Source of the DNA: Laetiporus sulphureus 93-53
Taxonomy: Eukaryota > Basidiomycota > Agaricomycetes > Polyporales > Laetiporaceae
Length of the DNA: 64,000 bases
NCBI RefSeq assembly: GCF_001632365.1
Contig: NW_024468520.1
Location: forward strand, 284,271-348,270
Direction: 5' to 3'
The position numbers and the translations under genes are program-made. Position 1 is the stretch's first letter, and the number at the start of each line of letters is the position of its first letter. Below, piece after piece: positions 2,710 through 45,100 of the stretch. Below the pieces are notes generated by a model. That model searched no databases, was not told where the DNA came from, and saw only the letters and a program-made list of their open reading frames with translations.

Positions 2710-2762
2710 GTAAGTCAACTGAATTCAGATACATTCAATTCATTTACTGACACTTAAACCAG

Positions 2763-10260: not shown

Positions 10261-10470
10261 GTATCCAGCACAGAGATCGACTTCAACAACGCTATGACAC
10301 CTCCATATGATCTGACGACATGCTTCTCTCCCGGACATAAGTTCAATGGAAATCCCCACTCCTCAGCATCACACTACCGTCTTTATCCATCGTGACCTAC
10401 CAGCCTGTGAGCACAGTAAAATGCAGGAGCGGAGTGAATAGCTTACTTATATTGAGAGATGAGCGTGCGC
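10260..10470 (-). repeat. Degenerate 3' module of the two-TM family (copy 1)
   Basis: On the minus strand this stretch matches the modules found downstream of the other two family copies (at 29.8-30.3 kb and 43.2-43.8 kb). The shared parts are an intron-like GTAAG...CTGGTAG segment and the GTCACGATGGA junction followed by a GGAGTGGGGATTTCC-like block. It is more diverged than the others and lacks their open frame. Confidence 0.5.
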
Positions 10471-10546
10471 ACGCCTGCTCGACAATGGCCTTGTATTTTA
10501 TTTTATTCCAAATAATGACCTCAACTATCGAGTTCCGCGACAACGA

Positions 10547-11554
10547 TCAGTACGTCAATATGGGAGTGATTGAGCGGCGTCGGATGGCTCTCGGACGTCC
10601 ACTCTGGCGTGCGGACGCTACTGACGGTGAGAATGATCCATTCATAGGCGCGTCCGACGAGGACACCATGGCATATCTCTTGCGCATCTTCTCCTTAGCA
10701 TTCGCTTGTGGCTGACAATATTGAACGACGTCGGCAACTGTGACGCAGAGAAAAGAAGAACACGTACCCGTCCCCCGGATACACGAGCTCGACGAAGACA
10801 ATGACCAGCACCGCCAGCCCTGCTCCGAGCCAGAACCACTTATCCTGGTTTATGGGTCTCTCTGGGCTCCCTCCTCTCGTCCGGCTTGGTCTTCCGATAT
10901 TTCCGAAAATGCCAGGGCCATGGCAGAGGGAGTAGACGCAGTTGATGTCGACGTTGACGTCGATACGTTGGTCAACCATATCGCATCGGCTGCAACGGCT
11001 GGAAAGTCCAGCGAGGAGATATAGAGCTCTTGGAGACGCTGAAGATGCTCCAGGTGTTGGGACCAACTGGGCTGTGGCCGTTCGTGTTGGCCCGTTTCGT
11101 CTTTATCTTTGGCAGCCGCTGACGGGTACGTGAGGAGTCTGACCGTGGACGTCGCGAATGCCATCGAGAGATGAGTGTCATCGTCCAGGGCTTGTCGAGA
11201 ACGATGGATGTAGTCGAAGTGCTCGCCAAATATCTCGGCCTCAGAGACGGCCGCATACCATGAAGGGTCTCCGGCGATGATAGAGGGTCTATCATCGGTG
11301 CGCACATAGCTCACCCGGCCAGCCAGCCATTTAGTAGACCACAACGCAGATTTCATGGCATGTCCGCTGCAAGCGCGTCAGTATGCTATTTCAGACAGGA
11401 AGCAAAGAACGTGCCCGTCGAGTCGAATATACATTGACGGCCCACCCAGACATGGGTATCCGAATTTCATGTAAGCAGACTGGCAGCTCTGGTAGATGCC
11501 AGCTAGGGCGACCAAGAAATAAGTGAGCAGAGGAAGAGCAGGCAGGATGAGCAT
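10547..11554 (-). pseudogene. Two-TM family gene, copy 1, decayed
   Basis: This is a paralogue of the genes at 28635-29678 and 43916-44963. Exon 1 starts at 11554 (MLILPALPLLTYFLVALAG, a hydrophobic signal anchor) and would splice at GCACGT instead of the GTGAGT used by the other copies. Exon 2 follows MKSALWST... to a Ser/Thr-rich stretch. Alignment with copy 2 between the GAGGAG and TTCTGG anchors shows 41 nt here against 42 nt there, a one-base deletion that shifts frame before the second TM segment (FWLGAGLAVLVIVFVELV). A GTACGT...TCAG intron then leads to the basic tail. The frameshift makes a full-length product unlikely. Confidence 0.7.
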
Positions 11555-11625
11555 GATGGGTGATGGTAGTCAAGAGGTTTCTGGACAGATGGAGCGTGAG
11601 CGGATGAATTTAAACGCTGTTTTTC

Positions 11626-11680
11626 GGAGGCTGGCCGCAGTTGTGAATCAGCCCCGTCATAGCTGTTAATGTCAGCCTAA
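11626..11680 (-). promoter_or_regulatory. Promoter inverted repeat of the two-TM family, copy 1 (degenerate)
   Basis: GGAGGCTGGC and GTCAGCCTAA face each other across about 35 nt upstream of the copy 1 start. They correspond to the cleaner GAGGCTGAC...GTCAGCCTC arms before the other two copies. The TATA box is replaced by TTTAAA. Confidence 0.5.
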
Positions 11681-27134: not shown

Positions 27135-28450
27135 AGCAGACAAGGTAAGCAAGGTAACGCAGTAATGTGAATCCCGTTGTATTCTTCAGTCTTGCTGCAG
27201 CAGAGACGGGCAAGAAGAGTCCTGAGGTTATCGTAGTCAAGAGCAAGGTAGAGACAGATGGGTGTCGTTGCGGCAGAAAACGTGGTGATGGTATAATTGA
27301 AAGGAGGGTGAAGGGGACAGCTCAGACTCGCGCGTGTGAGTTATGATCAACAAGATCATGTGATCGTGGCGGTACGCATTAAACAAACGTTGGCGCCCAC
27401 ATTCATACTCCGATTGCAACTCCCTTTGAGATAAGCGCTCGCTTTTATTCGCCGGAAATGCTCTGCAATAACCTCGCTCTTCTTCACAGTGAAAGAGGAT
27501 GTGCTTACGCTCAATGATCTGTCTCTGCGAGCGTATCTGGCCATGAAACATGTTAATTGTGATGGTGCAGTCTGTATTTCTGTTGACTGCTGCGGTGGTG
27601 TGCTCCGGATCTCGCTCGATTCATTCTGCTGGATCTCGATTGCTTTGCTGGCAGGATGCTATGTTGACGACGACGCCTACCTTGGCTGTTTCGGATTCCC
27701 ATCGGATCATTAATTACTGTGCCAAAATGTCTCATCGTTGTTGAGTGGGTCGAGAGCCGCACTATATAGCTTTGCGCCACAGGCCATCCGACTACCATGC
27801 GAATATTGTCGCGATAACTGCCTTCAAATGTCCACCGGCACCTCCTGCATACAGGTATATTCCTCGTTGTCTCCTTGTTAGATAGTTGCCGCTTCCTTGT
27901 GTCTCCTACGCAAATTTGGTAGTTGAATCATCGGGATCAGACGTGGCAACTTACTGTTGCAGGATTTGGTCTCATGTAAGTTGGCATGCATCGCGGTCCA
28001 TCATGTCAATGATGGGTTGGGTTTGGTGAGGGTTATCGGCGTATTCTGTCCTGGTTGCAGCAACACACCGATGTTTAGGGCAGATCAAGCGGAGGACGGA
28101 CGTTGGCATCAGCGAAGAAAGCTAAGGTTGCAAACGGTCCCACGTCTATGCGAACATACAACCGAGCATTCCAGCCTGAAGAGATCAAGTCGACGAACGA
28201 CGACGGAGTCGTCCATTGCCATTTTATTAGCACAGTCAATGATGTTCCTCGGGCGAACCTAGGCGTACATGGTGCGTTTGTTCGAACTATTCTGATAAAC
28301 GTTCCAAGCCGTCCTCATAGCTACCATTTGGAATCATACACTCGCAGGAGCTAATACGATGAAATTAGTGAGCGTGTATGAGAACGAGGGCAAGCGTCTA
28401 TTCTCCGGCCACCGATCTGCAGCGCTCGCACTGGTATTCATCATGCCATG
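27135..28450. other. Intergenic; Wee1 promoter side, no confident gene
   Basis: This includes the Wee1 upstream region. A short frame at about 28106-28354 (KKAKVANG..., followed by PEEIKSTNDDGVVHCHF) is protein-like but has no ATG and no recognised family, so it is not called as a gene. Confidence 0.4.
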
Positions 28451-28508
28451 GTATGGTGGTTGTTCAGTGCGAATCGACCGTGGAAAGTCAAGGTGGCCGA
28501 CTATCAGT

Positions 28509-28581
28509 GGAGGTTGACATTGACAGCCGTGACAAGGGTGACGAGATCGTCACTGTCAGCCTCCACGAAACAAGATATAAA
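28509..28581 (+). promoter_or_regulatory. Promoter of two-TM family copy 2: inverted repeat plus TATA box
   Basis: GGAGGTTGAC (28509-28518) and GTCAGCCTCC (28555-28564) form facing arms, followed by TATAAA at 28576-28581, 54 nt before the ATG. The same arrangement occurs before copy 3. The block is more conserved than its flanks, so it is probably the regulatory element of the family. Confidence 0.6.
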
Positions 28582-28634
28582 CCCCTCCGCTCCTGCTCTC
28601 TACCTCAGAAACATCTTGCCTACCATCGCCCATC

Positions 28635-29678
28635 ATGCTCATCCTGCCTGCCCTTCCTCTGCTCACTTACTTCTTGGTCGCTCTGGTTGGCATCTACCAG
28701 AGCTACCAAGCGGTGTACACCCAGTTCAGGTTCCCGTGTCTGGGTGGGCCGTCGATGTATGTTCGACTCGACGGGTGAGTTGTTTGCTTCCTGTCTGCAA
28801 CGGTACGCTGACGGGAATGCAGCGGACACGCCATGAAATCCGCACTGTGGTCTACTCGACGGCTGGCCGGCCGAGTGGACTATGTGCACATCGACGATGG
28901 ACCCTCCGTCATCGCCGACGACTATTCCTGGTATACGATCGTTACTGAGGCCGAGGTGCTTGACGAGCGCCTCGACTATGTTTACCGTTCTCGACAACCC
29001 ATGGACGGCGACACTCATCCCTCGACGGCACTCGCGACGCCCACGGTCGAATTCCTTACGCTTCCCTTAGCGGCTGCTGAAGAAGACGAGGGCGATACGG
29101 ACCACAGTGCATGGCTACAGCCCAGTTGGTCCCAGTACATGGAGCACCTTCAGCAACTACAGGAGCTCTACGCCGCCTCGACAGCTTTCCCAGCCGCCAC
29201 TGTCGATTCGGCATCGATGGTCAACATATCGACGTCGACTTCGACTTCCATTGCGTCTACCCCATCTGCTACGGCCCCACCTTTGGCAACCTCGGAAGGC
29301 AAGGTCGAACGGGAGGAGAAGATGCGAACGGGCTGGACGACACAAGACAAGTTCTTCTGGCTCGGAGGGGGTCTGGCGGTGCTTGTCATCGTCAGCGTAG
29401 AGCTCGCGTGTTCGGAAGACAATGTATGCGATTTTCCCTGCTCTGCGATATCGCCGCTTACAATCCTCTCGTGTCAGCCGGAAGCGAACTCCAAAGAAAA
29501 GGAGAAGAAGAAGTGCGAGGAAGATGTCGCGGAGTCATCGTCGGACACGTCCATGGACGGAGCGTTCTCACCGTCAGTAACTTCCACACCCAATAGTGGT
29601 CGTTCTCAGGCCGCCCGACGCCGTTCAGCGACTCCCGCCTCGGAGACATCGATACTCGTCGCGGACCCTTTTGGTTAA
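28635..29678 (+). CDS. Two-TM hypothetical protein, family copy 2
   Basis: Three exons (28635-28774, 28823-29423, 29478-29678) give 313 residues, with GTGAGT and GTATGC donors. I do not recognise the family. The N-terminus MLILPALPLLTYFLVALVG is a hydrophobic signal anchor. A middle acidic and Ser/Thr-rich region includes the heptad-like MEHLQQLQELY and a run of alternating Ser-Thr. A second hydrophobic span, FFWLGGGLAVLVIVSVELA, sits near residue 240. The tail is Lys/Glu-rich, then RRRSATPASE. This suggests a small membrane protein with a charged cytosolic tail. The copy at 43916-44963 is nearly identical in layout and most residues; the copy at 10547-11554 is broken. The stop is conserved between copies 2 and 3. 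Confidence 0.65.
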
Positions 29679-29753
29679 CTGAATTGATTTCTATTCGAAG
29701 GTGAGCGCGATCTCCTGATGACTATTGCAATCTTCACTCACTGGCCATCTCAC

Positions 29754-30327
29754 AGAAGACAAAGCTGACGATAATCAAAGACAACCCACGATCATCGAGG
29801 AACAGATGTACGCACGCTGATCTCCAATTACAAGTAAGTCGTTGGCACTGTTCATGCATTCACTCGTGCTCACATCTAGCCGATAGGTCACGATGGACAG
29901 AAATGGTGGTGTGATGTTGGGGAGTGGGGATTCCCATCAGACTTGTGTGTAGGAGAGGAGCATGGAAGCACGGAGTTGAAGGACGCACGCAAGATTGCTG
30001 AAGTCGTGGGACGTACCGGACATGTCCGGTCGTATTTGCACTGCATATTATCGAATCGGCAGGAATGGAGCATAAAGTACAAGTAAGTCGTTGGCACTGT
30101 TCATACATTTACCCGTACTCACACCTAGCTGATAGGTAACGACGAACAGGAATGGTGGTGTGATGTTGGGGAGTGGGGACTTCCGTCAGACTTGTGTGTA
30201 GGAGAGAAGCATGGAATTGAAAAGACGCACGTAACATTGTTGAGGTCGAGGGACGTACTGCACATGTCCGGTTGTATTTGTATCGCGTATTCTCGAATTG
30301 GCAGGAATAGAGCATAATGGGCATCAT
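29754..30327 (+). repeat. Two tandem 3' modules downstream of family copy 2
   Basis: The modules begin at about 29880 and 30130. Each has an intron-like GTAAGTCGTTGGCACTG...GATAG segment followed by a GTCACGATGGACAG / GTAACGACGAACAG junction and about 170 nt that read open in one frame (WCDVGEWG, then LCVGEEHG, then GHVRSYL). Unit 2 has a small deletion that breaks the frame. A preceding exon-like block near 29757-29833 ends, in the frame with QPTIIEEQ, in a stop that is conserved in position across copies. These could be spliced 3' UTR, a separate small gene, or alternative terminal exons; I cannot decide. Confidence 0.55.
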
Positions 30328-31500
30328 AAAAGATTTGTGTCACGGCTGCAACGAGCTAGCTTCGGATTGGGTTCTCTACGCCAACCGTTTCGAATAAACT
30401 CGGCGGTGCGCTTGTATTGCATGTCATGCCAGTTGAATATAGCAGTTGACCGTTCATCCATCTGTCGCAGCACCTATAACATAGTGCATCAGAATAGCAG
30501 GACAGGGATGGAATGTTCATCGCAAGAATTACGTTTGTGGATGCTTGGCACGCAGATGAGTGCAAGCCTCCGTGCAAGCCTCCCCGGTTCCCGTGTGCCT
30601 GAGCATGCACTGGCAGTCGCTATGACACAAGAAGACTGTAGAAAATCGCCGCTGGCCGCTGTCCCGAGGGCGGCGATGAGTAGCCGAGTCGCGCCGCGCG
30701 GCGTGGTTACTATGAGGCAAAACGCTGGAGACCCCGTCCCCGCTATATAGTACCCGTATACATATATACAAATACACCGGTGGCGGCGCTGCCCATTGCC
30801 CCTCCGGCCCCAGATTGCGACAAAGACTGCGATCTCTGCTGCGCTCTTCAGTTGCGAGGTTGCAGCTACTGATGATATCCGAGGACAAATGTGCCTCTGG
30901 AGGATCGGAAGTGAGCCTCGGGTTCTCCGACTGTCCAGCCTTTTGAACGAGCGGTGTGATTCCGGGAAGAGTGGAAGAATGAGATGCTGCAGCTGCCGTC
31001 TAACAGTGAATAGACTGTGCGAGTGTTGCGACAGCAGTATGTGCTGATCGTAGTCCAAGCAACTGCTACACGTGGCACATGCTAGTTTGAGCTTGACTGG
31101 TCGAAGTCCTCTCGACGCGTCTGTGGCTGTAAGATCCTTGAGATGAACTTCACGAATGGCAAGCTCAAAGCTGCTCAGCGTGCAAACGGGCTAGTAGTCG
31201 CCGTCGTTTCGTAAGCTATTCCAGGCACCGTGGTGTTTCTCAGCCGTGATGCATATTCAACTCATCCATCAACGCTCCGATGGCAACCACTGGCAGGTAC
31301 GCCCGGCTATCCTCCTTACGGTCGTCGCAAGGCTATCTTGACGAAATTTCGATCAATTGTTCCTTAACACGTTCCATCCTGGCGTACATGTGAAGGAACA
31401 ATCTCGTTTGAGATGATCTGCTTATCCGAAAAAAACGCTATACATCAAAGTTTCGACGGGTCATTGTATGTTCTAACTGCCAAGGTCACGTTTTCGGGAT
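30328..31500. other. Within left duplication arm, no confident gene
   Basis: The segment is homologous to part of 42.4-43.2 kb in the right arm (block GATCTCTGCTGCGC, and the CTATAACATAGTGCATCAGAA region). Neither arm has a conserved long frame here, so conservation reflects recent duplication rather than coding. Confidence 0.4.
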
Positions 31501-31561
31501 AAAAATGCAGTGGGCCCGAGATGCATAGCACAGTCACGCTTGAGTGCCTTATCTCGGCAGG

Positions 31562-31660
31562 ATCCATGCCTTTGGTACGAATCTGCTTTGTATCGCTGCT
31601 TCCGTCGCTGTGCGTCGCGCATATATACTTGTTGGCACCAAAGGTGATGCAACCATAATG
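31562..31660 (+). pseudogene. Small secreted-protein-like gene, left arm member 1, start codon lost
   Basis: The frame from 31562 reads (I)HAFGTNLLCIAASVAVRRAYILVG and matches the intact right-arm member that starts at 41955 with MHVSGSTLLCIAASVAVHCAHIPVG. The initiating ATG is ATC here. A GGATAAAAATGCAGTG promoter word upstream is shared with the right arm. Confidence 0.55.
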
Positions 31661-32163
31661 CCGATCATCCGATCATGTTAATAAGGGAAGACACAAGCAG
31701 TGCTATTCTATGACTAACATCAGCTTTGCCGTGAGGACGCCACAACTTCTCTTTTACAGCGACTGCTGCAGCCACTCCCAACTTCTGTGACCTGTCGGCC
31801 GCTAGCTGCCTCTGTGCACAGTGGTGCAGAGCCGACTCTATTATATCATTGCAGCAATGCTATGAGCCTGCCGATAGCAATGTTGTCATGATCATCTTCA
31901 AGATCCCTCTGGCCAGGGTGCAACTTCATGCGACGCGCCGCACGGACGGACCGATTAACGTGTCCTTTATAACATCGTTGATATATCCAACATCTCTCCG
32001 TCTCAAGGCCACGTTTACCGCGCTGAGCGTCATGTAGCAACAGAGTGGAGGTCTCGCTTGAGACGATGCGCATCTGCTGTAGGATGAGATTCTCCAGTAC
32101 AACGCCCGTCTCAGTAGCCACATTCTGGGAATTCTGATTCAAAATGAACTAGCTCGTCGGTGC

Positions 32164-32169
32164 TATAAA
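32164..32169 (+). promoter_or_regulatory. TATA box of small secreted-protein-like gene (left arm)
   Basis: TATAAA lies about 60 nt before the ATG at 32229 and is also present before the right-arm counterpart. Confidence 0.5.
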
Positions 32170-32228
32170 TGCACAATGACAGAGAGGCATGCCACAATAG
32201 CCATCGAATCTTTTGTCCCCTACTTCAA

Positions 32229-32453
32229 ATGCATATCATCCGCGGATCCCTATTCTGCCTCGCCGTCGTTCTCGCCGTACATTGCAGGCGCGTACCAACG
32301 CATACGGAAGATATTGAAGGTTTCAGTTATCTATTAGCGCCACTGGTAGCTGAGGGATCGGCTCATAGTCACCACCACTGCGGACGATCAATCAGGTGGA
32401 AGAATCGCGCCGCCCATCATCATACTGCCTTCAAATTCTACGACCGTTTCTGA
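32229..32453 (+). CDS. Small secreted-protein-like gene, left arm member 2
   Basis: The ATG at 32229 opens MHIIRGSLFCLAVVLAVHC, a short n-region plus hydrophobic core typical of a fungal signal peptide, followed by a His-rich 50-residue remainder. The right-arm partner at 40922 starts MYIIHGALFCLAAALAVHC. Homology is strong only over the signal-peptide exon. In the other members a donor-like AGAG-GTGAG follows this point, so an intron probably interrupts the frame and the residues after about position 28 are uncertain. No known family recognised. The end given is the stop of the unspliced frame. Confidence 0.4.
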   Translation: MHIIRGSLFCLAVVLAVHCRRVPTHTEDIEGFSYLLAPLVAEGSAHSHHHCGRSIRWKNRAAHHHTAFKFYDRF

Positions 32454-32869
32454 CTCCCCGCCTGAACCGTCCGTGTATAATTGCAAGCATGGCATCCGGT
32501 GCCACATGGGGTTTTGATAGTGGTTCGTTACTGTGACCTGTATACTCGAGTCTCGGATGAGTGCGTGATAAAGCACGACACTGCCGGAAAATGGCTGACT
32601 ACGTAGCATTCAGCGATTACTTGCAATGATACTCCACAGGTTGCAAGGAGACATACCAGCCCCTTTACGGCATCTTCTGTGGGCGAGAATGTGAAATCTG
32701 ATGTCTTCACGAAGAGACGTACCGTTCCATCCTCTTTTGCGCAAGGCACATGCAGACATTGCCAGCAAGTTCTGATATTGTCGCATTTCCTCGCATAATC
32801 TAACACTCTTGTTCACCATGTACACGCGGCATGAAAATAGAGGTTTTTTAATTCTAGGTATTTAGTGTG

Positions 32870-33310
32870 TGCGGGCATGCAACGGCACGTCTAAAAAGCC
32901 AGAGTTTAATAAAAGATGCAGGCAAGTGAGGATGGACCCCTGTGCCAAATGGACGCGGTCCCGGCCCATGCTCAATCCAGGAGGGGGATCGCCACCGCCA
33001 ACCCCCAGCCCGAGGTTCGCAATTCCCGAGACGGTTGCATCTTAGTGTTCGCACTTGTTCCTGAGACACTGTTTGCCGAAGAGGATGGATACCGGCTGAT
33101 CTGGGCGGTCATCATGTGAGTCATGCAGCTGCAAGGCTCAAGCACAATCAGCACTTCGGTATTAGGAGAGTGACAACCTCTTTCTCACCTGCATCAGCAG
33201 TCTACGCATCTCTGCATGCATGCCTCGTAGTCCCTCACCTTTATACAGCGCATTTTGCGCTCGGGCACTAGCGAGAATAGTACTAGCGCGGGCCCGCCGG
33301 CGAGCGGCGT
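32870..33310 (-). pseudogene. Truncated relic of the RING/TRAF gene C-terminus
   Basis: On the minus strand the fragment matches exons 5-6 of the gene at 38553-40328: LASARAQNALYKGEGLRGM against LASARAQDALYTGEELRGM, then a GTGAG...GCAG intron, then LHDMMTAQ against LHDVMTAQ, then FGTGVHPHLPASFIKL against FGTGAHPHLPASFTKL. The stop (TAG) has become TGG and the middle of the last exon is out of frame. Nothing upstream of the repeat-like segment is present, so it cannot encode the RING or TRAF domains. Confidence 0.8.
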
Positions 33311-33466
33311 TGGGGCGTTCTACAGCGGTTTCCATTTTCGGATCACAGTGTGCCACTGCCACCTCGATACAGGTCCGAACGCACTTAATTCCTGTTAATC
33401 CCTGAGCTGTTAAGGTTTTGACCTTCACGCTATACTCATCATTCCTGAACAGCAATATTCACCATC

Positions 33467-34272
33467 ATGTCTGGAAAAGGAGGTGCATACGCTACAAGAG
33501 CCTCTGATACGGACTTCCGCAAAAAATGGGACAAGGAGGAATACGCCGAGAAGGCGCGGCAGCGCGACCAAGAGGAGAAGGAGCGTATGCAGGAGAATGA
33601 GGAGCGTATCAAACAAGGTACGTTGCAATATTACACCGATGGAAGGTCTTAACTTCACTCTACCCGTCACCTCACAGGCAAGAAACCGCGCAGAGGACGC
33701 AAAGAGGACCTGCCCAAGCCCACAGAGCTTATGAAGCGTCGCGAGGCATCCCTTGAGCTCGAAAAGAACCTCAATAAGACCATAGTCGTGCAGAACGCTG
33801 GTACCCGCGGTCCTGGAGTACCAGGCTTCTATTGCGAAGTCTGCAATCGGACATACAAGGACAGCGCTGGGTACCTGGATCACATAAATGGACGTGCTCG
33901 TGCGTGAACCCCATGTTCATCATCCCGATCTGAAGTTTTGACGAGACTCTAATGTATATAGACTTGCGCGCCCTTGGTCAGACGACGCGTATTGAGCGTT
34001 CCACAGTAGAGCAGGTCCGCGCACGGATAGCCTACCTTCGCGAGAAGACTCGCGAAGCCTCTTCGGCGAAATCGTACGACTTTGAGAAGCGGCTTGCCGA
34101 AGTGCGTGAAAAGGAGACCTCATTGCGTGCTGAGAAGAAGGCTGCAAAGAAAGTGCAGCGAGAGCAGGCGCGTGTCGAGCTCGTCAAGGTCACTGTTGCC
34201 GGCGACGCGCAGCACGAGGACGTCATGATGGAGATGATGGGCTTCAGCGGGTTCGGCTCGTCAAAGAAATGA
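33467..34272 (+). CDS. SNU23: U4/U6.U5 tri-snRNP zinc-finger protein SNU23 (ZMAT2-like)
   Basis: Three exons (33467-33617, 33678-33899, 33962-34272) give 227 residues. The N-terminus is charged (DFRKKWDKEEYAEKA). A matrin-type C2H2 finger follows: FYCEVCNRTYKDSAGYLDHI with its second histidine in INGRAH, split by intron 2. Then comes the diagnostic LGQTTRIERSTVEQVRARI and a Lys/Arg-rich helical tail. This order is that of human ZMAT2 and yeast Snu23, which joins the spliceosome with the B complex. It is convergent with IleRS (about 100 bp between stops). The derived duplication arm ends about 150 bp before the ATG, so the promoter has been rebuilt. Confidence 0.93.
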
Positions 34273-34372
34273 ACGGCATGGTCCAGTCACGAAAGCAAGC
34301 TGTATTCTACACGCACACCAATGTACTACATCCCACTGTCTTCATGTATATCATATAGCTGATATCTAACCT

Positions 34373-37300
34373 CTATCGCCACGCTAGGGACAGCACGAAC
34401 TTTACGTCAGCAATCTCCTGCTCCTCCTCAATCAAGATCTTTTGCTCCGGTTTCCGCTCGGAAACGTCCTTCGGCACACTTCGCACCGTCTTTTGGATCA
34501 AATCAGAGTATTCGCGCATCGCTTGGAGCAGCTCCTCGCCGGAGCCCTCCTCGAAGGCATAGAACACATCCACATCGTCCGTCGCCTGCAGACCTGCCCG
34601 CTTGCGCAGCTTTTGAATGCGATTGATGAGCTCCCGCGTCAACCACTCGCTCTGCAGTTCTTTGTGCACCTGGATGTCGAGGCGTATAACGACATCGGTG
34701 TCGGTGTGCGTCGCATACTGCGCCTGGCCTTCCACCGGCTCTGGCAGGTCGATGTACCGCTGCACGGCCAGATCGCCACTGACAAGGGCAATGCCGTCGA
34801 CGGTGATTTTGCCCGTCTGGACGTACTTGCGCACATCGTCACTCGACAGGTTCGGGAGCGCGGCCTTCACGCGAGTTATGTCCTTGCGCAGCTTCTTGCC
34901 CAAAGTCGCCCAGTCAGCCACCGCGCGATAGCGAACGCCGGCCATGTCCTCGTCCGAGGTGAAGATGATGTCCCGGACATTCAGCTCGGACTGAATGTAC
35001 CGTTGCAGCCCACGAGCGTCCTCCAAGAACTCCTCCTCGGCGTGGAACACGAGCAGCTCGCGTAACGGTGTCTGAACAGGCGGTATGAACAATGAGAAAT
35101 AGATACAATGCATATAATCTGTACCTTTAGCGAGAGGTTATGCCGCTCACGGATGTTGCGCGTGAGTTCAATGACTGTCTGTAATCGCTCGACCTGGCGC
35201 TCGATCGTCGCATCGAAGTATTCTTCCTTCACCTCTGGGAAAGGCAGGAAATGCACGGAGCGGGTATCGCTCGCTTTGGGATTATCTGGGATGAACGGCC
35301 GGAGAGCTTGATACATGTTTTCTGTGACGAATGGTGTGTACGATGACTGTGCGACGACGGGACGTCAGCAAGACTGCAGCATTGATGAATACAGTTATGA
35401 CATGCCATTGTCCTGCAGAGCGTGAACAACGTCTCAAAGAGGGTGTTCAATGCCGCTACGGTATCCTCAACGCCATCCTCGCCCTTTAATCGTCTTCGGT
35501 TGAAGCGAATGTACCAATTTGTCAGCTCGTCGATGAGATCGAGCAGACGGGGTATGATCGTGTATAGGCGGTACGCGGCCATCTCCTCGCTCACGAGGCG
35601 GATAAGTGACTGGCAACGCGCGAGGATCCAGCGGTCCATGACGTTCGACGACACGGGCGCGTGCGCGGCGTACATGAACTCCACGCCCGAGGTTTTCTTG
35701 AGCAATGCGGCTTGCCCGAGGAAGAAGCGCAGGGCGTTCAACCAGGGGAGGAGCACGCGCGAGACGACTTCGCGGACGCCCTCTTCCCGGAAGCGGAGGT
35801 TGTCTCCGCGGACAATGGGCGAGTTGACGAGGAACATTCTGATGTAGATACGTCAGAATGTGGCGGCTCTCATCGTGGCACGCGGCTTTCTGACCTGGTC
35901 GCGTCCGCACCGTAAAGGTCAATGATAACATTGGGATCAGGGTAGTTTTTCAGACTTTTGCTCATCTTCTTGCCGTCACTGCACACATCGCAAATCAGCA
36001 CAATTAAGAATATATTTGTACGAATCGAGGGACAACGCTCACGCTGCAAGCACCAGACCATAGACAATGAGGTTCTTCCATGGTGCCGTGCCGAACAAAT
36101 GTGTCGACAGCACCAGCAACGTGTAGAACCAGCCACGGGTCTGATCGATACCCTCAGAGACGAAGTCAGCAGGGAACGTGTTCTGGAACTTCTCCTTGTT
36201 CTCGAACGGATAGTGGATTTGCGCATACGGCATACTTCGAACAAGACGTTAGAAATTCAATCTGCAGCCCAAACCACGAAGCAAGAACGTACCTGCCAGA
36301 CTCGAACCAGCAGTCAAATACCTCCTCGACACGCTTCAGTTGGCCTTTCCCTTTTTTCGATGGGATAGTGATATGGTCGATCTTTTCCCGGTGCAGATCA
36401 GTGAGGCCAGTGACGCCCGAGAGCCGTTCGAGCTCCTCAACGGAACCCACGCAGACTATCTGTGCAGACAGCGAGGTAAGGTCAGTATAGGCGCTCGATG
36501 CAGGCGAGACATACCTCCTCCATGTCCTCACTCGCCCATAGCGGGATAGGCGTGCCCCAGTAGCGATTCCGCGAGACATTCCAGTCGCGTGCGTTCGCGA
36601 GCCAGTTGGCGAAACGGCCGTCGCCGACGTTCTGCGGTACCCTGGCGCATGCAAATTGTCAGCTGCAGCATGTCGTGGTGATATCTGCAGGTACCGACCA
36701 TCTTGTTTGCTTGTTGTTCGCCACTAGTTGGTCGACGATGGGCGTCACGCGCACGAACCACGAGGGGATGGCACGGTAAATGAGTGGTGTATTTGATCTG
36801 GAGGGGGGAGTAGTATTGTTTGGTACGGCGGAAAGAAGAATGCTCTCATGCAAGCCGCTCACCTCCAACAGAAAGGATACGAGTGCGTGAGCGTCGACTG
36901 CACGATCAAGCGGCCTTTAGCTTTCAACACCTTCTGGATCTCCTTGTCCGCAGCCTATCGAAGTGCGACATGTTCATGCGTCAGACGAGAGCAAGCGGGG
37001 ATGTGGACGAAGCCTACTTTGACATACATGCCCGCAAAGTCCGGCACCTCCTGTGTGAAGCGGCCAGTATCATCAATTGGGCAGGGAGGCATCTCCTCCA
37101 CACGAAGCATGCCGTTCGCGATCGCAATGCGGTGATCGTCCTCACCAAATGCGGGCGCTTGATGGACGATACCAGTACCATCTTCGTCGGTAACATAAGT
37201 GTCAGTGAGAACACGGAATGCCCTGTCCTCGTACTAAGACGATGGCTTCAGCGGCAGAAATCGTTCAATGGGTTCTGTGCTAACCTGCTCAGTGAAGTAC

Positions 37301-38223
37301 TCGAAAAGGGGGACGTATCGCCAGCCTTTCATGTCCGAGCCCTTGAAGGTGCTGAGTTTCTTGAACTTGGCCTTCTTCGGATCCTTGTACAGCGTGCGAA
37401 GCAAACCCTCGTGCAGGATGAAGTTCTGATCACGCGCCTCATCGTGGATCTTGACGTAAGTGTAATCCGGGTGCACGCACAGCGCGAGGTTGGACGGAAG
37501 CGTCCATGGCGTGGTCGTCCACGCGAGCAGCGATGTCTTCCTGTCATCCACGAGCGGGAACGCGACGGTGATCGCCGGGTCGCTCACGTCTTTGTAGTTC
37601 AGGCCCGCCTCGAAGTTGGACAGCGGCGTGAGGCAGCCGGTCGAGTACGGCATGACCTTGAGCCCGCGGTAGACCATGTCCTTCTTGTATAGCTCGCTGA
37701 ACGCCCACCACACGCTCTCCATGAAGGTCGTGTTGAGCGTCTTGTAGTCGTTGTCGAAATCGATCCAGCGGCCTATGCGCTCGACGGTGCGCCGCCATTC
37801 GGACGCGTACCGCATGACGATAGCGCGGCACTCGGCGTTGTAGGCGGCGATGCCCATCTTCATCACGTCTTCGCGCCCGGTAATGCCCAGCTTCTTGTCG
37901 ATCTCGTGCTCGACGGGTAACCCGTGTGTATCCCATCCGAATCGGCGAGTGACATGGAATCCGCTCGCATGTGCGTGTCTTGTTACGATGTCCTGTGCAA
38001 AGTAAGGCTTCCATCCGAGCATCAGGAACGGACGACTCACTTTGATGGTACCCGCAAGCAGATGACCGTAGTGTGGAAGACCGGTCGCAAATGGCGGGCC
38101 GTCGTAGAAGGAGAACTCTGGCCTGCCCTCGGAAAGCTTCAAGCTAGTCTGAAAGGCATCAATCTCGCGCCAGTACTCGAGAACCTTTTCCTCCTCCTTG
38201 GCAAAGTTGAACGGTGCAGACAC
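34373..38223 (-). CDS. ILS1: Cytosolic isoleucyl-tRNA synthetase
   Basis: Multi-exon class I synthetase starting at 38223 ([18 protein letters not shown]). Exon 1 is 38223-37285 and exon 2 is 37233-37018; further exons continue to the stop at 34373. Visible motifs: the HIGH signature as PHYGHLLAG, the [16 protein letters not shown] block, the editing-domain TTPWTLPSN and [15 protein letters not shown], and the KMSKS loop in [14 protein letters not shown]. The DPDV-type zinc ligand region and the long C-terminal extension ([10 protein letters not shown]) match the eukaryotic cytosolic enzyme, not the mitochondrial one. It charges tRNA-Ile with isoleucine and edits valine. It diverges from the RING gene with 329 bp between starts. 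Confidence 0.95.
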
Positions 38224-38552
38224 TGTGAGATCGCGAGAGTCAAAACAGATCTACGGATATGAATATGCAAATTGGCTTCACGCACGATCATGCGGAGGAA
38301 ACGGCATGGCTGCAATTTCTATCGGCAGAATGCCACAATATGAGCTCTTGCGAGTAGGAAGAAAGGGTCAGAGCTTGAGCAGACGTGGGTTTTGAGCGGG
38401 ATAAATGCGACGAAGGAACAATCCGATGACTCGAGGTAAACCTTGCAGGAAACGGGCGCTTGTGAGAGGTAAAGATCAATCGACTAGATCATCAGAGCGT
38501 GACCTGCCAGGGGATGCTCAACCAGCTCCGAGCTCGTTTGTCTCCGCCCACC

Positions 38553-40328
38553 ATGTCCGCCTCGTTCTACTCCTACGTTGACTCACCAAATCCGAACCTG
38601 GCAAGTAACGCCTGTTCTTCTAGCTTGTGGGACTTGCTAATGTACTCCTAGGTATGCTGCATATGCAGGTATGCACTGTAGCAAAAGTCTGTGATGGCTA
38701 GCTAAAACTGACCGCTGCGCAGAAATCCCTTCTTCGACCCGTATACAACTCGGACATGTGCACACACGTTCTGCCTTGACTGCATCGCACGTGCTATTGC
38801 TATCTCGCCTCAATGCCCCATCGACCGATGCCCCCTCTCTATGCACGATATTGCTCCTGCCGATCCTGTTATCCGGAACGTGTGTATTCCGTCTTCGCAT
38901 GCCTCTGTCTTCTCAACTTACGAATTTATGTAGCTTGTAGACGAGATCCTCGTTGAGTGCGTGAACCGCAGCGCAGGATGCCCCTACACTTGCCAACGGC
39001 AGCTCCTCCCCATGCATGTCAAGGATTCCTGCGGTTTCGTCGAGCTCCCATGTCCCGTCGGACAGTGCGACAGATCAGTACTACGCAAGGATCTTGGGTC
39101 ACACAGTCATGACCCTTCAACTCCTTCCTCCTCGACAACTATTGAGCCGGACGCGGCAGCATCCGAGGTGAGTCCGACCGACGCTCGGAATTCTTAGTGT
39201 ACTCACCGGATGACATCACGCGGACGACTTGCAGAGGAAACTAGGGCCTTCTCATGAAGCAGATGGTGAACAGTCTGCACGCTCAAACGCCGCACCCTTG
39301 CCTGATGGGTCGAAGTCTCTCGCGACAGAGAACGCCGTCCTACGCTTGCGCCTTTCTGCCCTCGAAGGCGTCGTGAACGTACTTCATCAGGAACTACAGG
39401 CCGTTCAGCGTGCTCTTGGTCCATGGTACAGGTCAGGAGGAACAGAAGGGCAGGGAGCGGGCGCTTTCCAAGCAGACGGCCTTCGGCCAAACTCCGAGAA
39501 CGTGGTACCCAGTATGGCCCAGGAGCGCTCCCCGAGATCTTCTTCCGCGCCCATTCAACCAATCAGCCACTCTATTTCGGCCAATCCTGATAGCACGGCA
39601 GGCGACGACTTCGCATCGTACTTCCCACCTGTGGAAGAGGAGAATGTTTATTCCCTTCAAATTCCCCGCAGCGATTCCGACAATATTACTTTGGCGCGAC
39701 CCGCTCGCCGAGACCACAGCGCGATTGCACAGGGGATGCAGCCGCCTACGACCAGCAATCCACAGCGCATACACCCACCCTCCTATTCGTTCCCGCATCC
39801 CCCGTCCTTCCCATCACCATACCCATATGCATCCACCCCCACCGCCTTCTCTCCGGCCGCTATCACGGTGCCACCACTAGATCCGACCGTCCCTCTTCCC
39901 AGCACGCTCGCATCCATGCACGCGTCGCTTGTCTCGCTTGCCGGCGCGCTAGGGAGTCTCGCTAGTGCCCGAGCACAGGATGCGCTGTATACAGGTGAGG
40001 AACTACGAGGCATGCGTGCGGGGATGCATGGACTGCGGATGCAGGTGAGATCGAGGTTGCTCTCCTAACAGCGAAGCCGAAGTGCTGATTGTGCTTGCAG
40101 CTGCATGACGTTATGACTGCCCAAGTCATCCGGGACCCATCTTCTTCGGCAAGCAGCGTCTCAGGAACAAGTGGGAACGCTGTAGATGGGACCGTCTCGG
40201 GAATCGCGAACCTCGGGCTGGGGGTTGGCGGTGGCGGTCCCCCTCCCTGGACTGGGTATGGGCCGGGACCACGTCCATTTGGCACAGGGGCCCATCCTCA
40301 CTTGCCTGCGTCTTTCACGAAGCTCTAG
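38553..40328 (+). CDS. RING plus TRAF-type zinc finger protein
   Basis: Six exons (38553-38600, 38652-38668, 38723-38879, 38934-39167, 39235-40044, 40101-40328) give 497 residues. Exon 1 uses a GC donor (GCAAGT) and exon 2 is only 17 nt; together they restore the RING start VCCICRNPF, continuing TCAHTFCLDCI and CPIDRCPL. A TRAF-like zinc finger follows (ECVNRSAGCPYTCQRQLL, then CPVGQCD). A short coiled coil (ATENAVLRLRLSALEG) precedes a Pro/Ser-rich region and a Gly/Pro tail. This is the architecture of a putative E3 ubiquitin ligase; the substrate is unknown. Its last exons are duplicated in inverted, broken form at 32.87-33.31 kb. Confidence 0.8.
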
Positions 40329-40703
40329 CCTTGCAAACATGCTGTTGCATGCCCGCACACTCTGAATACCTAGGATATAGAAATCGCTATTCTCCTGCCG
40401 GGCGTACGTGGTGAACAGGGAATGTTGGACTATGCGAGGAAATGCGACAATATTAGTACTTGCTGGCAATTCCCTCGTGTGCCTCGCGCAAAGGGGATGT
40501 AACGCTACGTCCCTTCGTGAAAACATATCAGATTTCATGATCTCGCCCCTTTGCCCACAAAATCTGCCGTAAAGGGACTTATATGCTTGCTTGCAACCTA
40601 TAGAGTATCACTGCAAGTAATCGCTGGATGCTACATAGTTAGCCATTGGTCAGCGTCGTCCTTTATCACGCACTCACCCGAGTTGGGTCGTTACAACCCA
40701 CCG

Positions 40704-40922
40704 TCAAAACCCGTACTGTGGGTATGTCCTCAAGCTGGCGATGGGCAGTTCAGCAGACTGTATGGGCGTGATGCTTGTAGTGACTGTCATGTCATGTAAT
40801 CCCTTAATCATCGATGCAACTAAGTTCTTAGGAAGCTCACCTCTTGTATGCATTGGTATGGGCCTGCAATGCACAGCAAGAGCTGCGGCGAGGCAGAATA
40901 GGGCTCCGTGGATGATATACAT
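40704..40922 (-). CDS. Small secreted-protein-like gene, right arm member 2
   Basis: The ATG at 40922 gives MYIIHGALFCLAAALAVHC, a signal peptide, then RPIPMHTR and about 45 further residues in the unspliced frame. A TATAAA lies about 60 nt upstream. A GTGAGC donor-like site falls right after codon 27 at the same place as in member 1, so the remainder may be intronic. No family recognised. Confidence 0.4.
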   Translation of the reverse strand: MYIIHGALFCLAAALAVHCRPIPMHTRGELPKNLVASMIKGLHDMTVTTSITPIQSAELPIASLRTYPQYGF

Positions 40923-40999
40923 TCGAAATAGGGGACGGGGGATGCGATGGCTATCGTGGCATGCTTCTCCATCGTTGCGCATTTATAATACCGATGAGC

Positions 41000-43190
41000 T
41001 GACATTTTGAGTCAGATTGCCCAGAATGTGGCTCTGAGAGGAGCGTCTCATCGGGCCTACAGCAAATGCGCATCGTCTCGAGTGAGGTCGCCACTCTATC
41101 GCCACACAGCTCGGTGCTGTAACCGCGGCCCAGTGGGACGGAGTGATGTCAGGCATACTATGTTATAAAGACATGTTAAACGATCCGTCCGTGCAGCGCA
41201 TGGCGTGAAGTTGCTCCCTAAATTAGAAACTTGAAGATGATCATGACAACGTTGCTATAGGCAGGCTCATATCGCTGCAATCATGTATTTTAGGCTCTGC
41301 CATTATGCACAGGGACAGCTAGGGGCAAGATAAGTGAAGGAGAGGCTGCGGCGTCACCACGTCGCGGTATGACTGATATCAGTTATGAAATACCTTTGTT
41401 CGTGTTTGACCTTACTTCTATGCATGCTGTGTTTTCGGTTCGATGAATGACAGCATAATGATCCTGTGCCACAGAAAGACTGATATTATCGGAGATCGGG
41501 GTTGCATACTACATCGCCATTCCATTACTGATACGGTCGTGTGGCTATGGAGTTGAAGTAATCAATTTGCCGCTTGCAACTGTATGGTGCTTCGGTTAGC
41601 GAATAGTAATCACTCGTGCTGCCAGTGTCTGAGTGGTACTACTTCCATGCAGCCTCCCATCGGCCATTGTGGGCAGATCTCAAAACCCCATACCGCAAGC
41701 GGTACCTACGCCGATACCAAACTTATCTTCAGGGCATGATGACTCCGTGTACTGTGAAACTTCTGTTTGAGTTGTCTGAGTAGACAATTCATGTTGCTCA
41801 GGCTGTCCTAGCATCTCCTAGGATGTCAGCTAATCTCTCGTTTTCTCGGCGTCGCTCAGCGTTGAAACCTCACCTCTATTACCAACAGGTATGTGTGCGC
41901 AATGCACAGCGACTGAGGCAGCGATGCAAAGCAGAGTTGAACCAGAGACATGCATCTTCCCCAGAGAAGCACAAAACGTGATTGTGCTATGCATCCCGGC
42001 ACTGCACTTTTATCTTTAAGACATGACCTTGGCAATCAGAACATACAATAATCAAACAGAATGGCGTGTAGCATTTTTTTGCCATCTGAACTGAGTTTGT
42101 TCCTTCGTAAGTGCATCGGGAGGGAATGCCACTGGATGGAACGTATCAGGGACTGAGTGAACAGTCAGTCAAAATCTCGTCGAGGTACGATGATCATCAT
42201 CAGGGGGGGGCTAGTACTAGTATCCGGGCGCATCTGGTTGCCAATCGAGCTTTGATTGACAAGTTAATCATGCATCACGGCTGAGAACCACCACCGTCGC
42301 CTGGATCAGTAATGAAACGATGATGGTGAGTAGCTACACTTGCATGCTGCCTGAGCAGCTCTGAGTTCGCCACCGCGTTCAACCCCGAATCTCAAGATCT
42401 CAAGATCTCACTGTGACTACTAGCAGCAGTCAAAGTGAGCTCAGTGCTCAGTGACTACGGTCGGAATTTTCCTGGCATGTGGCACGTATAGCCTTCTCGT
42501 CAGCTCGAACCTTCCAGCCGTTGCTTTGGCTACAATCAGCATGACATACCGCTCTCGTAACACTCGCACAGTTTTCTCCACCAACGGACAGCATCAGCAA
42601 CAGCATCTCACTCTTCCCGCAATTACACCGCTCGCCCAAAAGGTTAGACAGTCTGAGAATCTGAGGCTCGCTTCCGGTCCATTGACATATTTGTCCTCGT
42701 GTGGATGGACTTGAAACATATAGAAGCGCTCTCCGAAAGAACATGCTAGCCGCGTAGTTCTCGGGTGCTCCCGAGCATATCATATATCGGATGTCGTCAA
42801 TAGCTGCGACTTCGCAACTGACGGGCGCAGCAGAGATCGCAGTCTTCTTGTGTCGTGACAACTGCAAGGTCAGGCACATAGGGAGTCGGGATTGATCTGT
42901 TTGCCAAGTATGCAGGTGCGTAGTTTTTTTGCGATGAACACTCCGCCCTTGTCATAATATTCTGATGTATGACGCTATATAGGTACTGCGACAAATGAAC
43001 GCGCGATTGCTACGCCTGAAACTTGCGTGACACGCAATAAGTGCGCACCGCCGAAATTGTTCAAGGTGATTGACGTAGAGGACCATAAGGAACGACTGTC
43101 TTCCTGTACGAAGGCCGATTTATGAGCCTACCCGACGTGAAGGTGGCTCGCCACAGCGGTGATCCAGGTCTTTTATGATGCCCATTATGC
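41000..43190. other. Right arm interior, no confident gene besides the secreted-protein exons
   Basis: This corresponds to about 30.3-32.2 kb of the left arm. It contains short duplicated words (AGATCTCA twice near 42396-42412), but no frame conserved between arms outside the listed genes. Confidence 0.4.
41870..41955 (-). CDS. Small secreted-protein-like gene, right arm member 1 (exon 1 only assigned)
   Basis: The ATG at 41955 encodes MHVSGSTLLCIAASVAVHC followed by AHIPVGNRG, then a GTGAGG donor-like site. The unspliced frame stops about 20 codons later. Only the signal-peptide exon can be supported; downstream exons were not identified. Confidence 0.35.
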
Positions 43191-43880
43191 TCTATTCCTG
43201 CCGATTCGAAAATATGCGATACAAATACAATCGAACATGTCCGGTACATCCCTCGACTTCAACAATGCTACGAGCGTCTTTCAACTCCATGCTTCCATGC
43301 TTCCCTCCTACACACAAGTCTGACGGTAAGCCCCACTCCGCAACATCACACCACCGTTCCGCTGTCCATCGTGACCTATCGGCTAGGTGTGAGCACGAGT
43401 GAACGTATGAACAGTGCCAAAGACTTACTTGTACTTGGAGATTAGCGTGCGTACGCCTGCTCGACGATGACCGTGGGTTGTCTTCGATGGTCGTCAGCTT
43501 TCTCTTCTGGGAGATGGCTAGTGAGTGAAGATTGAGATATTTATGAAAGACCGTGCTCACCTTTGAGTAGATATCAATTTCCAATACGTCCCTCGACTTC
43601 AACAATGTGACTTCAACTCCATGCTTCCATGCTTCTCTCCTACACACAAGTGTGGCCGAAATATTCCCCACTCCCCAACATCACACCACCGTTCCTGTCC
43701 ATCGTGACCTATCGGCTAGATGTGAGCACGAGTGAATGCATGAACAGTGCCAACGACTTACTTGTACTTGGAGATCAGCGTGCGTATGCTTGCTCGACGA
43801 TGATCGTGGGTTGTTTTCGATGATCGTTAGCTTTGGCTTCTGCGAGATGGCTAGTGAGTGAAGGTTGAGATTGTCGTGAA
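43190..43880 (-). repeat. Two tandem 3' modules downstream of family copy 3
   Basis: On the minus strand two units (about 43880-43560 and 43560-43190) each hold a GTGAGC...CTCGCAG or CTCCCAG intron-like piece, an exon-like block with QPTIIVEQ or QPTVIVEQ ending in YAR and a stop (TGA in one, TAA in the other), a GTAAGTC...CCGATAG intron-like piece, and a block reading WCDVAEWGLPSDLCVG in the second unit. The first unit has a rearranged end. These are homologous to the modules at 29.75-30.33 kb. Confidence 0.55.
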
Positions 43881-43915
43881 AGATATCGCTCACCTTCAAA
43901 TAGAATTCAATTCAA

Positions 43916-44963
43916 TTAACCAGAAGGGTCGGCGTTGAGTGTCGACGTCTCCGAGGCAGGAGTCGCTGAACGGCGTCGGGTGGCCCGAGAACGACTACTC
44001 TTGGCTGTAGATGTTATAGACGGTGAGAACGTTCCGTCCGTGGACGTGTCCGACGATGACTCCATGACATCTTCCTCGCGCTTCTTCTTCTCCTTTTCTT
44101 TGATGTTCGCTTCCGGCTGATACGAGAGGATGATAAGCAACGACGATGCAGAGCAGAGACAATCGCATACATTGTCTTCCGAACACGCGAGCTCTACGCT
44201 GACGATGAACAGCACCGCCAGACCCCCTCCGAGCCAGAAGAACTTGTCTTGTGTCGTCCAGCCCGTTCGCATCTTCTCCTCCCGTTCGACCTTGCCTTCC
44301 GAGGTTGCCAAAGGTGGGGCCGTAGCAAATGGGGTACACGCAATGGAAGTCGATGTCGACGTCGATATGTTGACCATCGACGCCGAATCGACAGTGGCGG
44401 CTGGGAAAGCTGTCGAGGCGACATAGAGCTCCTGTAGTTGCTGAATGTGCTCCATGTACTGGGACCAACTGGGCTGTAATTTTGCGTTGTGGTCCGTGTC
44501 GTCCTCGTCTTCTTCGGCAGCCGCTGATGAGAACGTGAGGAATTCGACCGTGGGCGTCGCGAGTGTCGTCGAGGGGTGAATGTCGTCGTCCTTGGTTTGT
44601 CGAGAACGATAGACGTAGTCGAGGCGCTCGTCAAGCACCTCGGCCTCGGTGATGATCGCATACCAGGAATGATCGTCGGCGATGACAGAGGGTCCATCGT
44701 CGTTGTGCACGTAGTCCACTCGGCCGGCCAGCCGTCGAGTAGACCACAGTGCGGATTTCATGGCGTGTCCGCTGGATTCAGGTCAATGTACTGTCGCATA
44801 CAGGAAGCAAGCAAGCAACTCACCCGTCGAGTCGAACATACATCGACGGCCCACCCAGACACGGGAACCTGAACTGGGTGTACGCCGCTTGGTAGCTCTG
44901 GTAGATGCCAACCAGAGAGACCAAGAAGTAAGTGAGCAGAGGGAGGGCAGGTAGGATAAGCAT
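43916..44963 (-). CDS. Two-TM hypothetical protein, family copy 3
   Basis: The start is at 44963 (MLILPALPLLTYFLVSLVG). Exon 1 ends in the same GTGAGT donor after YVRLDG, exon 2 opens with GHAMKSALWSTRRLAG, and the second TM is FFWLGGGLAVLFIVSVELA. A GTATGC...TCAG intron precedes the Lys/Glu-rich tail ending in NADPSG. Exon structure and most residues match copy 2, with mostly conservative differences and no disabling change seen. Family and function unknown; a small membrane protein is inferred. Confidence 0.65.
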
Positions 44964-45017
44964 GATGGGCGATGGTAGTCAAGATGTTTCTGGGGAGGAT
45001 AACAGGAGCGGAGGGGG

Positions 45018-45089
45018 TTTATATGTTGTTTCATGGAGGCTGACAGTGATGGTCTCGTCACCGTGGTCACGGCTGTCAATGTCAGCCTC
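45018..45089 (-). promoter_or_regulatory. Promoter of family copy 3: TATA box and inverted repeat
   Basis: On the minus strand GAGGCTGAC (45089-45081) and GTCAGCCTC (45044-45036) are perfect 9-bp facing arms with a 36-nt spacer, followed by TATAAA (45023-45018), 55 nt before the ATG. Same order and spacing as before copy 2. Confidence 0.65.
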
Positions 45090-45100
45090 TGTTGGCGGAC

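What the first reader, a model, noticed from the sequence alone, without database searches (positions are those of the whole stretch)
28450..45100. Inverted ~5 kb segmental duplication flanking SNU23, IleRS and a RING gene
Four to five gene blocks occur in the same order in 28.45-33.31 kb and in reverse complement in 39.95-45.10 kb. The right arm begins inside an intact RING/TRAF gene while the left arm has only that gene's tail, so the direction of copying (right to left) can be read. Inverted arms around essential genes can mediate inversion of the 6.6 kb between them and may be a source of variation among strains.
Basis: seen in the sequence. Interest (0 to 1): 0.75.

Follow-up and report, generated by a model that had tools for sequence, protein, structure and literature searches.

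The report
Old inverted duplication around essential genes
A stretch of a wood-rotting mushroom's chromosome carries an old, worn, back-to-front copy of a 5 kb piece on either side of two housekeeping genes, an ordinary local duplication in which one small, little-known gene has probably kept swapping sequence between copies.

Summary
The inverted duplication is real. Left arm 28510-33276 matches right arm 45089-39957 in reverse complement, mostly 65-89% identical. The 38.6-Mb assembly appears to be Laetiporus sulphureus 93-53. "Four to five gene blocks" is not supported: the arms hold one complete gene (A: 313 aa, three exons, two hydrophobic segments), the RING gene's 3' tail, and about 2.5 kb of apparently noncoding DNA. 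The four alternate in orientation within about 58 kb; none was found elsewhere in the assembly. Right-to-left copying is supported because the left arm is cut short at both ends. Divergence is uneven: K2P and dS 0.11-0.16 around gene A (its introns 20-25%), 0.25-0.41 in the middle. A 117-bp identical tract and mosaic sites suggest past ectopic gene conversion, though silent sites alone leave the A2/A3 case inconclusive. Inversion of the middle segment is untested and, with arms this diverged, unlikely to recur. Low interest.

The parts
28510..33276 (+). left arm of the inverted duplication (inferred derived copy, truncated at both ends)
   Evidence: self-BLASTN and global alignment to 45089-39957 reversed; ends against right arm and A4
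39957..45089 (-). right arm (inferred donor); its homology with A4 continues to 45164
28635..29678 (+). gene A copy A2: exons 28635-28774, 28823-29423, 29478-29678; 313 aa; open; hydrophobic stretches at residues 1-22 and 223-245
   Evidence: splice-site reading of four copies; Kyte-Doolittle 19-residue scan; its product from residue MKSALW on equals P0004, NCBI name LAESUDRAFT_65446
43916..44963 (-). gene A copy A3: ATG 44963, introns 52 and 54 nt, 313 aa, open
10319..11678 (-). gene A copy A1 with its downstream unit, decayed: first intron starts GCACGT, frame broken, early stop (218 aa as read)
29826..30317 (+). tandemly doubled unit of about 245 bp downstream of A2 (right arm: 43237-43912, spacing about 333 bp; related sequence near A1 and A4); some indels not in threes, so probably noncoding
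30370..32552 (.). block B, left: apparently noncoding middle of the arm; alignable pieces K2P 0.25-0.41 to the right arm
   Evidence: found only in the two arms
40682..43084 (.). block B, right: apparently noncoding middle of the arm
33162..33276 (-). RING gene tail left over in the left arm (no RING or TRAF-type finger part)
   Evidence: alignment to 39957-40068
38712..40068 (+). RING / TRAF-type zinc finger gene (start codon and exon joins not settled); its last ~112 coding bases and 3' flank lie in the right arm
   Evidence: Pfam PF13923 E 7.5e-07 (over cut-off), PF02176 E 4.7e-05 (below its cut-off); last exon ORF 39214-40068
33467..34272 (+). SNU23 (ZMAT2) gene between the arms; start codon read by eye from the ORF list
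   Evidence: ORFs; Pfam zf-met; phmmer to 5o9z_N E 1.4e-11 and 5nrl_L E 6e-06
34373..38250 (-). isoleucyl-tRNA synthetase gene in several exons, between the arms (5' end approximate)
   Evidence: PF00133 E 9.4e-66; PF08264, PF19302 and a further PF00133 exon; plasmid ileS matches up to 51.4% identity
29267..29383 (+). 117-bp tract identical between A2 and A3 (right arm 44327-44211): inferred gene-conversion tract
   Evidence: 10 consecutive A2=A3 sites 29283-29368, permutation p 0.00025
43085..43134 (+). short dispersed element present in the right arm and absent from the left (48-column gap)

Best explanation
This is an old local inverted segmental duplication in Laetiporus sulphureus. A segment of about 5 kb (RING gene tail, its 3' flank, about 2.5 kb of intergenic DNA, and the complete gene A for a probable membrane protein) was copied from the right of SNU23/IleRS/RING to the left in reverse orientation (shown: anatomy; inferred: direction). 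Gene A also exists as two other local copies, A1 (old, dead) and A4 (frame-disrupted near its start). After the duplication the middle decayed, while the A units of the arms and of A4 were partly homogenised by ectopic gene conversion and held by weak purifying selection (shown: uneven divergence, a clustered identical tract and a site mosaic; inferred: conversion as the cause). The arms have no shown function of their own.
For: Arms aligned end to end. Block B seen in only these two places of the 38.6-Mb assembly; gene A in four, all on C11 (the tool calls its counts lower bounds). Left arm truncated at both ends. K2P 0.11-0.16 in A flanks and dS 0.147 in A, against 0.25-0.41 in B1-B4; Fisher p 2e-10 on 98/750 v 322/1311 differences, counts derived by me, introns left out. 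Longest A2=A3 run of 10 informative sites, p 0.00025. Shared-derived sites change partner 14 times, p 0.0024; A2=A3 derived run of 5, p 0.011. dN/dS 0.42 for A2-A3; syn v nonsyn Fisher p 0.0006 on back-derived counts. CpG transitions do not explain the faster block B.
Against: The conversion signal rests on one long run plus weaker mosaics. With only silent or noncoding sites the A2=A3 run falls to p 0.06, and the best silent run (p 0.001) is A3=A4 instead. Shared-derived runs for A3=A4 (7, p 0.055) and A2=A4 (3, p 0.33) are not significant. A4 is frame-disrupted, so A4-only changes could cluster through relaxed constraint; 4 of the 10 sites in the run are, however, A2/A3-derived states with A4 equal to A1. 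Introns of A2-A3 differ at 23 of 102 columns, close to block B, which favours selection over conversion for part of the contrast. RING 3' flank and tail are also low (0.13-0.17) without a test for conversion, and a 60-bp piece of block B (30823-30882) is 88% identical.
Confidence: 0.8

Rival explanations
1. Arms that act as a recurrent inversion switch: crossovers between them flip SNU23-IleRS-RING and strains differ in orientation.
For: Inverted arms with 1.5 kb at 89% and a 117-bp exact match; conversion traces suggest that the copies have interacted.
Against: Arms differ by 10-33% and the middle is broken by many indels; conversion without crossover explains the traces; no second isolate could be read here.
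Confidence: 0.08
2. No gene conversion: one duplication at one time, the A unit merely kept similar by purifying selection and the rest drifting.
For: dN/dS 0.42; introns of A2/A3 differ by 20-25%, near block B values; silent-site A2=A3 run p 0.06.
Against: Synonymous sites and A flanks (0.11-0.16) are well below block B (0.25-0.41); site mosaic among A2/A3/A4.
Confidence: 0.2
3. Gene A moves as its own ~1.8 kb cassette (transposon-like), and the arms are two insertions.
For: Four copies plus a fragment in alternating orientation.
Against: Block B and the RING tail continue collinearly beside A in both arms; the copies found all lie on one contig within about 61.5 kb, fragment included; no Pfam match in the main gene A ORF.
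Confidence: 0.05
4. Assembly artefact or misplaced allele (haplotype duplicated in the assembly).
For: Reads could not be examined.
Against: Arms differ by 10-33% with different flanks and a right-arm-only insertion; the copies are inverted on one contig, unlike the usual haplotigs (general knowledge).
Confidence: 0.02

Closest known systems
Local inverted segmental duplication with ectopic gene conversion between paralogues (general eukaryotic process; recalled)
   Same: Collinear reverse-complement arms, truncated gene at one breakpoint, uneven divergence with a more alike gene block
   Different: Arms much more diverged than the young, near-identical arms usually linked to recurrent inversion; mechanism of the original duplication not visible
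Mating-type switching by inversion between inverted repeats in methylotrophic yeasts (Ogataea, Komagataella; recalled)
   Same: Inverted repeats around unique genes
   Different: No KN-type homeobox or STE3 match in the window: 4 of 5 PF05920 matches lie on C48 and 1 on C2, all 5 PF02076 matches on C87; arms 10-33% diverged

Membership tests
Inverted segmental duplication | Two collinear reverse-complement copies in one chromosome, longer than 1 kb | tested here: met
   flanks align at 0.30-0.43 only
Inverted segmental duplication | At least 90% identity (usual cut-off for young segmental duplications, recalled) | tested here: not met
   best 1.5 kb is 89.4%, longer middle blocks 65-75%: an old duplication
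Ectopic gene conversion between paralogues | Tract of identity that departs from the rest in a site-pattern test | tested here: met
   run of 10 sites p 0.00025, one of three pairs tested; partner switches p 0.0024
Ectopic gene conversion between paralogues | Same signal with silent sites only | tested here: inconclusive
   A2=A3 silent run p 0.06; A2=A4 p 0.43; A3=A4 p 0.001
Inversion system driven by inverted repeats | Both orientations seen among isolates or cells | not testable with these tools
   only one assembly of this species could be read here
Inversion system driven by inverted repeats | Long, nearly identical arms | tested here: not met
   longest exact match 117 bp, next 72 bp
Mating-type locus | KN-type homeobox or STE3 genes in or near the arms | tested here: not met
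   PF05920: 4 of 5 matches on C48, 1 of 5 on C2; PF02076: 5 of 5 on C87. A PF00046 homeodomain gene lies at about 15 kb
Transposable element | Many dispersed copies, or transposase | tested here: not met
   gene A 4 copies on one contig, block B 2; no Pfam domain in the main ORF of gene A

The most novel reading that the evidence does not exclude
The four alternating copies of an apparently Laetiporus-limited membrane-protein gene form a self-renewing variation cluster: the inverted copies trade tracts by gene conversion and occasionally flip the housekeeping segment between them, so that isolates differ both in gene A alleles and in orientation.
Probability: 0.06. Interest if true: 0.45.

Novelty: new member of a known kind. 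Interest (0 to 1): 0.2.

Why it matters
It documents, at sequence level, an old inverted duplication around two housekeeping genes in a brown-rot polypore, with a little-known gene kept more alike between copies than its noncoding neighbours. It is a small test case for how long diverging inverted copies keep exchanging sequence. It does not change what is known about such duplications.

Tried and rejected
Mating-type locus: considered because a homeodomain match lies at about 15 kb and inverted repeats are known around mating-type loci of some yeasts (recalled). Rejected: PF05920 matches lie on C48 (4 of 5) and C2 (1 of 5), and 5 of 5 PF02076 matches lie on C87. PF00046 has 14 matches in the assembly, 3 on C11, one of them this gene.

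Block B as coding DNA: rejected. tblastx between the arms gives matches in all frame combinations (linked sets from E 1e-124 to 1e-66), in short pieces of at most 68 residues that change frame along the arm; the call also covered the RING tail. A frame-by-frame substitution test was not run.

CpG decay as the cause of the faster block B: rejected. CpG transitions are 12-24% of differences in B1-B4 and 20-22% in the A unit and second tandem unit. Without them B1-B4 stay at 0.155-0.265 against 0.076 (A unit, coding included) and 0.111 (tandem unit).

Wider family for gene A: a single-sequence search and an alignment search of about 5.8 billion proteins gave the same 5 proteins: 4 with longest contig 772203, which includes the window's own, and 1 on an 8980-base contig of unnamed origin (one search scored only the 7993 candidates sharing most words). 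That tool needs shared 5-residue words, so distant relatives may be missed and 'Laetiporus-limited' is provisional.

Literature: 'ectopic gene conversion / inverted duplication / basidiomycete' (13 listed), 'Laetiporus / gene conversion' (10 of 12 listed) and 'LAESUDRAFT' (0 papers). No listed title concerns this locus; none of those papers was opened. PMC10652036: outline and abstract only. PMC9602373: search listing only.

Full report
Where it is. The window is G000:C11:284271-348270 of an assembly of 38,595,550 bases in 124 contigs. Two gene A proteins (P0003 = A4, P0004 = A2) carry the NCBI name 'uncharacterized protein LAESUDRAFT_... [Laetiporus sulphureus 93-53]', so the window is from that brown-rot polypore or a very near relative. 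The search gives their longest contig as 772,203 bases, while C11 has 756,462; I did not resolve this difference. tRNA and Rfam scans of the window found nothing.

The observation. Self-BLASTN of the window gives a collinear chain of reverse-complement matches: 28510-30023/45089-43577 (89.4%), 30370-30557/43084-42895 (70.1%), 30823-30882/42846-42787 (88.3%), 30880-31067/42699-42516 (75.0%), 31157-31647/42372-41870 (66.9%), 31798-32305/41326-40846 (75.5%), 32552-33276/40682-39957 (81.3%). A global alignment of the two arms shows identity of 0.30-0.43 in the 100-column windows outside 28.5/45.1 kb and 33.3/39.95 kb. A more permissive scoring joins 31755-33304/41369-39933 at 73% and 30880-31647/42699-41870 at 65%.

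What the arms contain. The gene A end holds a three-exon gene. A2: 28635-28774, 28823-29423, 29478-29678, 313 aa. A3: ATG at 44963, stop at 43916, 313 aa. Introns of 48-54 nt have GT...AG ends in A2 and A3. The A2 product has two hydrophobic stretches, at residues 1-22 and 223-245, and the 288-residue ORFs have no Pfam match. In a search of about 5.8 billion proteins, single-sequence and alignment queries both gave 5 proteins, 4 with longest contig 772,203 and 1 on an 8980-base contig with 87% identity. Downstream of gene A lies a 240-340 bp unit in two tandem copies in each arm; some of its indels are not in threes in the alignment, so I read it as noncoding. The other end of the arms holds the end of the RING gene and its 3' flank. 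Between the two, about 2.5 kb (block B) looks noncoding: translated matches between arms occur in all frame combinations in pieces of at most 68 residues, and two ORFs there have no Pfam match over cut-off. So there is one complete gene per arm, not four or five.

Copies elsewhere. Gene A DNA and protein searches of the whole assembly find copies only on C11: A1 (window 10319-11678, minus), A2 (plus), A3 (minus), A4 (C11:350659-352552, plus; window-equivalent 66389-68282), and a fragment at 71621-71855. A1 has a changed splice donor, broken frame and early stop; A4 has a 4-bp insertion in exon 1 that breaks the frame from the first ATG, and NCBI's protein starts downstream of it. A search with the right arm 39957-43185 gave 34 matches: 1 itself, 6 in the left arm, and 27 on other contigs that all match only the dispersed element near 43085-43134. 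The tool calls such counts lower bounds.

Direction. Two ends agree. RING and TRAF-type finger exons lie only on the right; the left has the gene's last ~115 bases and then unrelated sequence leading into SNU23. Upstream of gene A, the right arm and A4 share a further 75 bp (89.9% of 69 aligned columns), while the left arm has 41% to the right arm and 38% to A4, the level of random pairs (mean 43%, max 53%, n=30). The left arm therefore looks like a piece of the right arm's context and not the reverse. Loss of the rest of a left RING gene after duplication is not excluded without an outgroup.

Timing and conversion. Between the arms, K2P is 0.11 (A 5' flank), 0.15 (A 3' flank), 0.16 (second tandem unit), 0.41, 0.26, 0.36 and 0.25 (B1-B4), 0.17 (RING 3' flank) and 0.13 (RING tail); A2-A3 dS is 0.147 and dN 0.062. 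Left out of these blocks: the indel-rich stretches between them, which align worst, and the 60-bp piece 30823-30882, which is 88% identical. A noncoding (98 of 750) against B1-B4 (322 of 1311) differs with Fisher p 2e-10 (counts derived by me proportions; the A introns, 23 of 102, were not included). CpG transitions do not explain it. Among 173 variable sites of A2/A3/A4, the longest run with A2=A3 is 10 sites (29283-29368), permutation p 0.00025 for one of three pairs tested (A2=A4 p 0.07, A3=A4 p 0.58); the 117-bp exact match 29267-29383 is the longest between the arms. Using A1 to polarise, 35 shared-derived sites switch partner only 14 times (p 0.0024), with five A2=A3 derived sites in a row (p 0.011); the A3=A4 and A2=A4 derived runs have p 0.055 and 0.33. 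Against this: with silent and noncoding sites only, the A2=A3 run gives p 0.06, while an A3=A4 run of 12 sites gives p 0.001; and the A introns differ by 20-25% between arms, like block B. My reading is an old duplication (block B level), with later patchy conversion among A2, A3 and A4 plus weak purifying selection (dN/dS 0.42-0.56 among the three). In the alignment the outside protein P0002 shares with A4, not with A2/A3, the residues Q of QTGW and A of LGAG inside the tract, which fits an A2-A3 exchange; its locus of origin is unknown.

Could it invert? SNU23 and the tRNA synthetase lie between the arms. Inversion would leave both intact. By contrast, recombination between the direct pairs A1/A3 or A2/A4 would delete them; this follows from the layout. 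No second isolate could be read here, so polymorphism stays untested. Arms 10-33% diverged with many indels are poor crossover substrates (general knowledge).

Right-arm insertion. The right arm has a ~48-bp stretch (within 43085-43134) missing from the left. It belongs to a dispersed family: a 27-base core has 24 matches in the assembly with up to 2 mismatches, this copy included; control 0. Of 21 copies given to a script (20 of the 27 found, plus the window copy), 20 were scored and one (L022) was not matched by the script's pattern. Of the 20, 4 have perfect 9-bp flanking direct repeats close to the element, one a 9-of-10 match, two weaker or more distant matches (L020 10 of 11, 24 bases away; L031 7 of 7, 19 bases away), and the rest at most 5 bases or none, the window copy among those with none; no shuffled control was run. 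Several copies share longer upstream sequence, so it may be the end of a longer element.

Verdict. A real, old, ordinary inverted segmental duplication, somewhat richer than described (four-copy local gene family, probable gene conversion) and not a shown inversion system.

Noticed in passing
window 43085-43134: Copy of a ~46-50 bp dispersed element (24 core matches in the assembly; 27 matches on other contigs). Most copies read end in CCTA and some carry 9-bp flanking direct repeats, as a very short non-autonomous transposon might.
   Followed up: partly
window 908-5473 (+): Helitron-like N-terminal domain (PF14214, E 8.3e-35) and PIF1-like helicase (PF05970, E 3.4e-26) ORFs: a Helitron, at least part of it open.
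   Followed up: no
window 14030-15819 (-): Homeodomain transcription factor gene split over two ORFs (PF00046 E 3.4e-10, and 0.0042 below its cut-off); not the mating-type locus.
   Followed up: partly
G000:C48 about 142-149 kb and C87 about 48-63 kb: Likely mating-type loci: four KN-type homeobox matches on C48 and five STE3 receptor matches on C87.
   Followed up: no
window 59449-59626: 89-bp direct tandem duplication, 87.6% identical.
   Followed up: no
L009, window-equivalent 68991-69663: Direct tandem repeat with a spacing of about 321 bp, 85% identical, just downstream of A4.
   Followed up: no
window 46053-46298 (-): Ribosomal protein L11 family exon (PF00298 E 8.2e-13) next to the right arm.
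   Followed up: no
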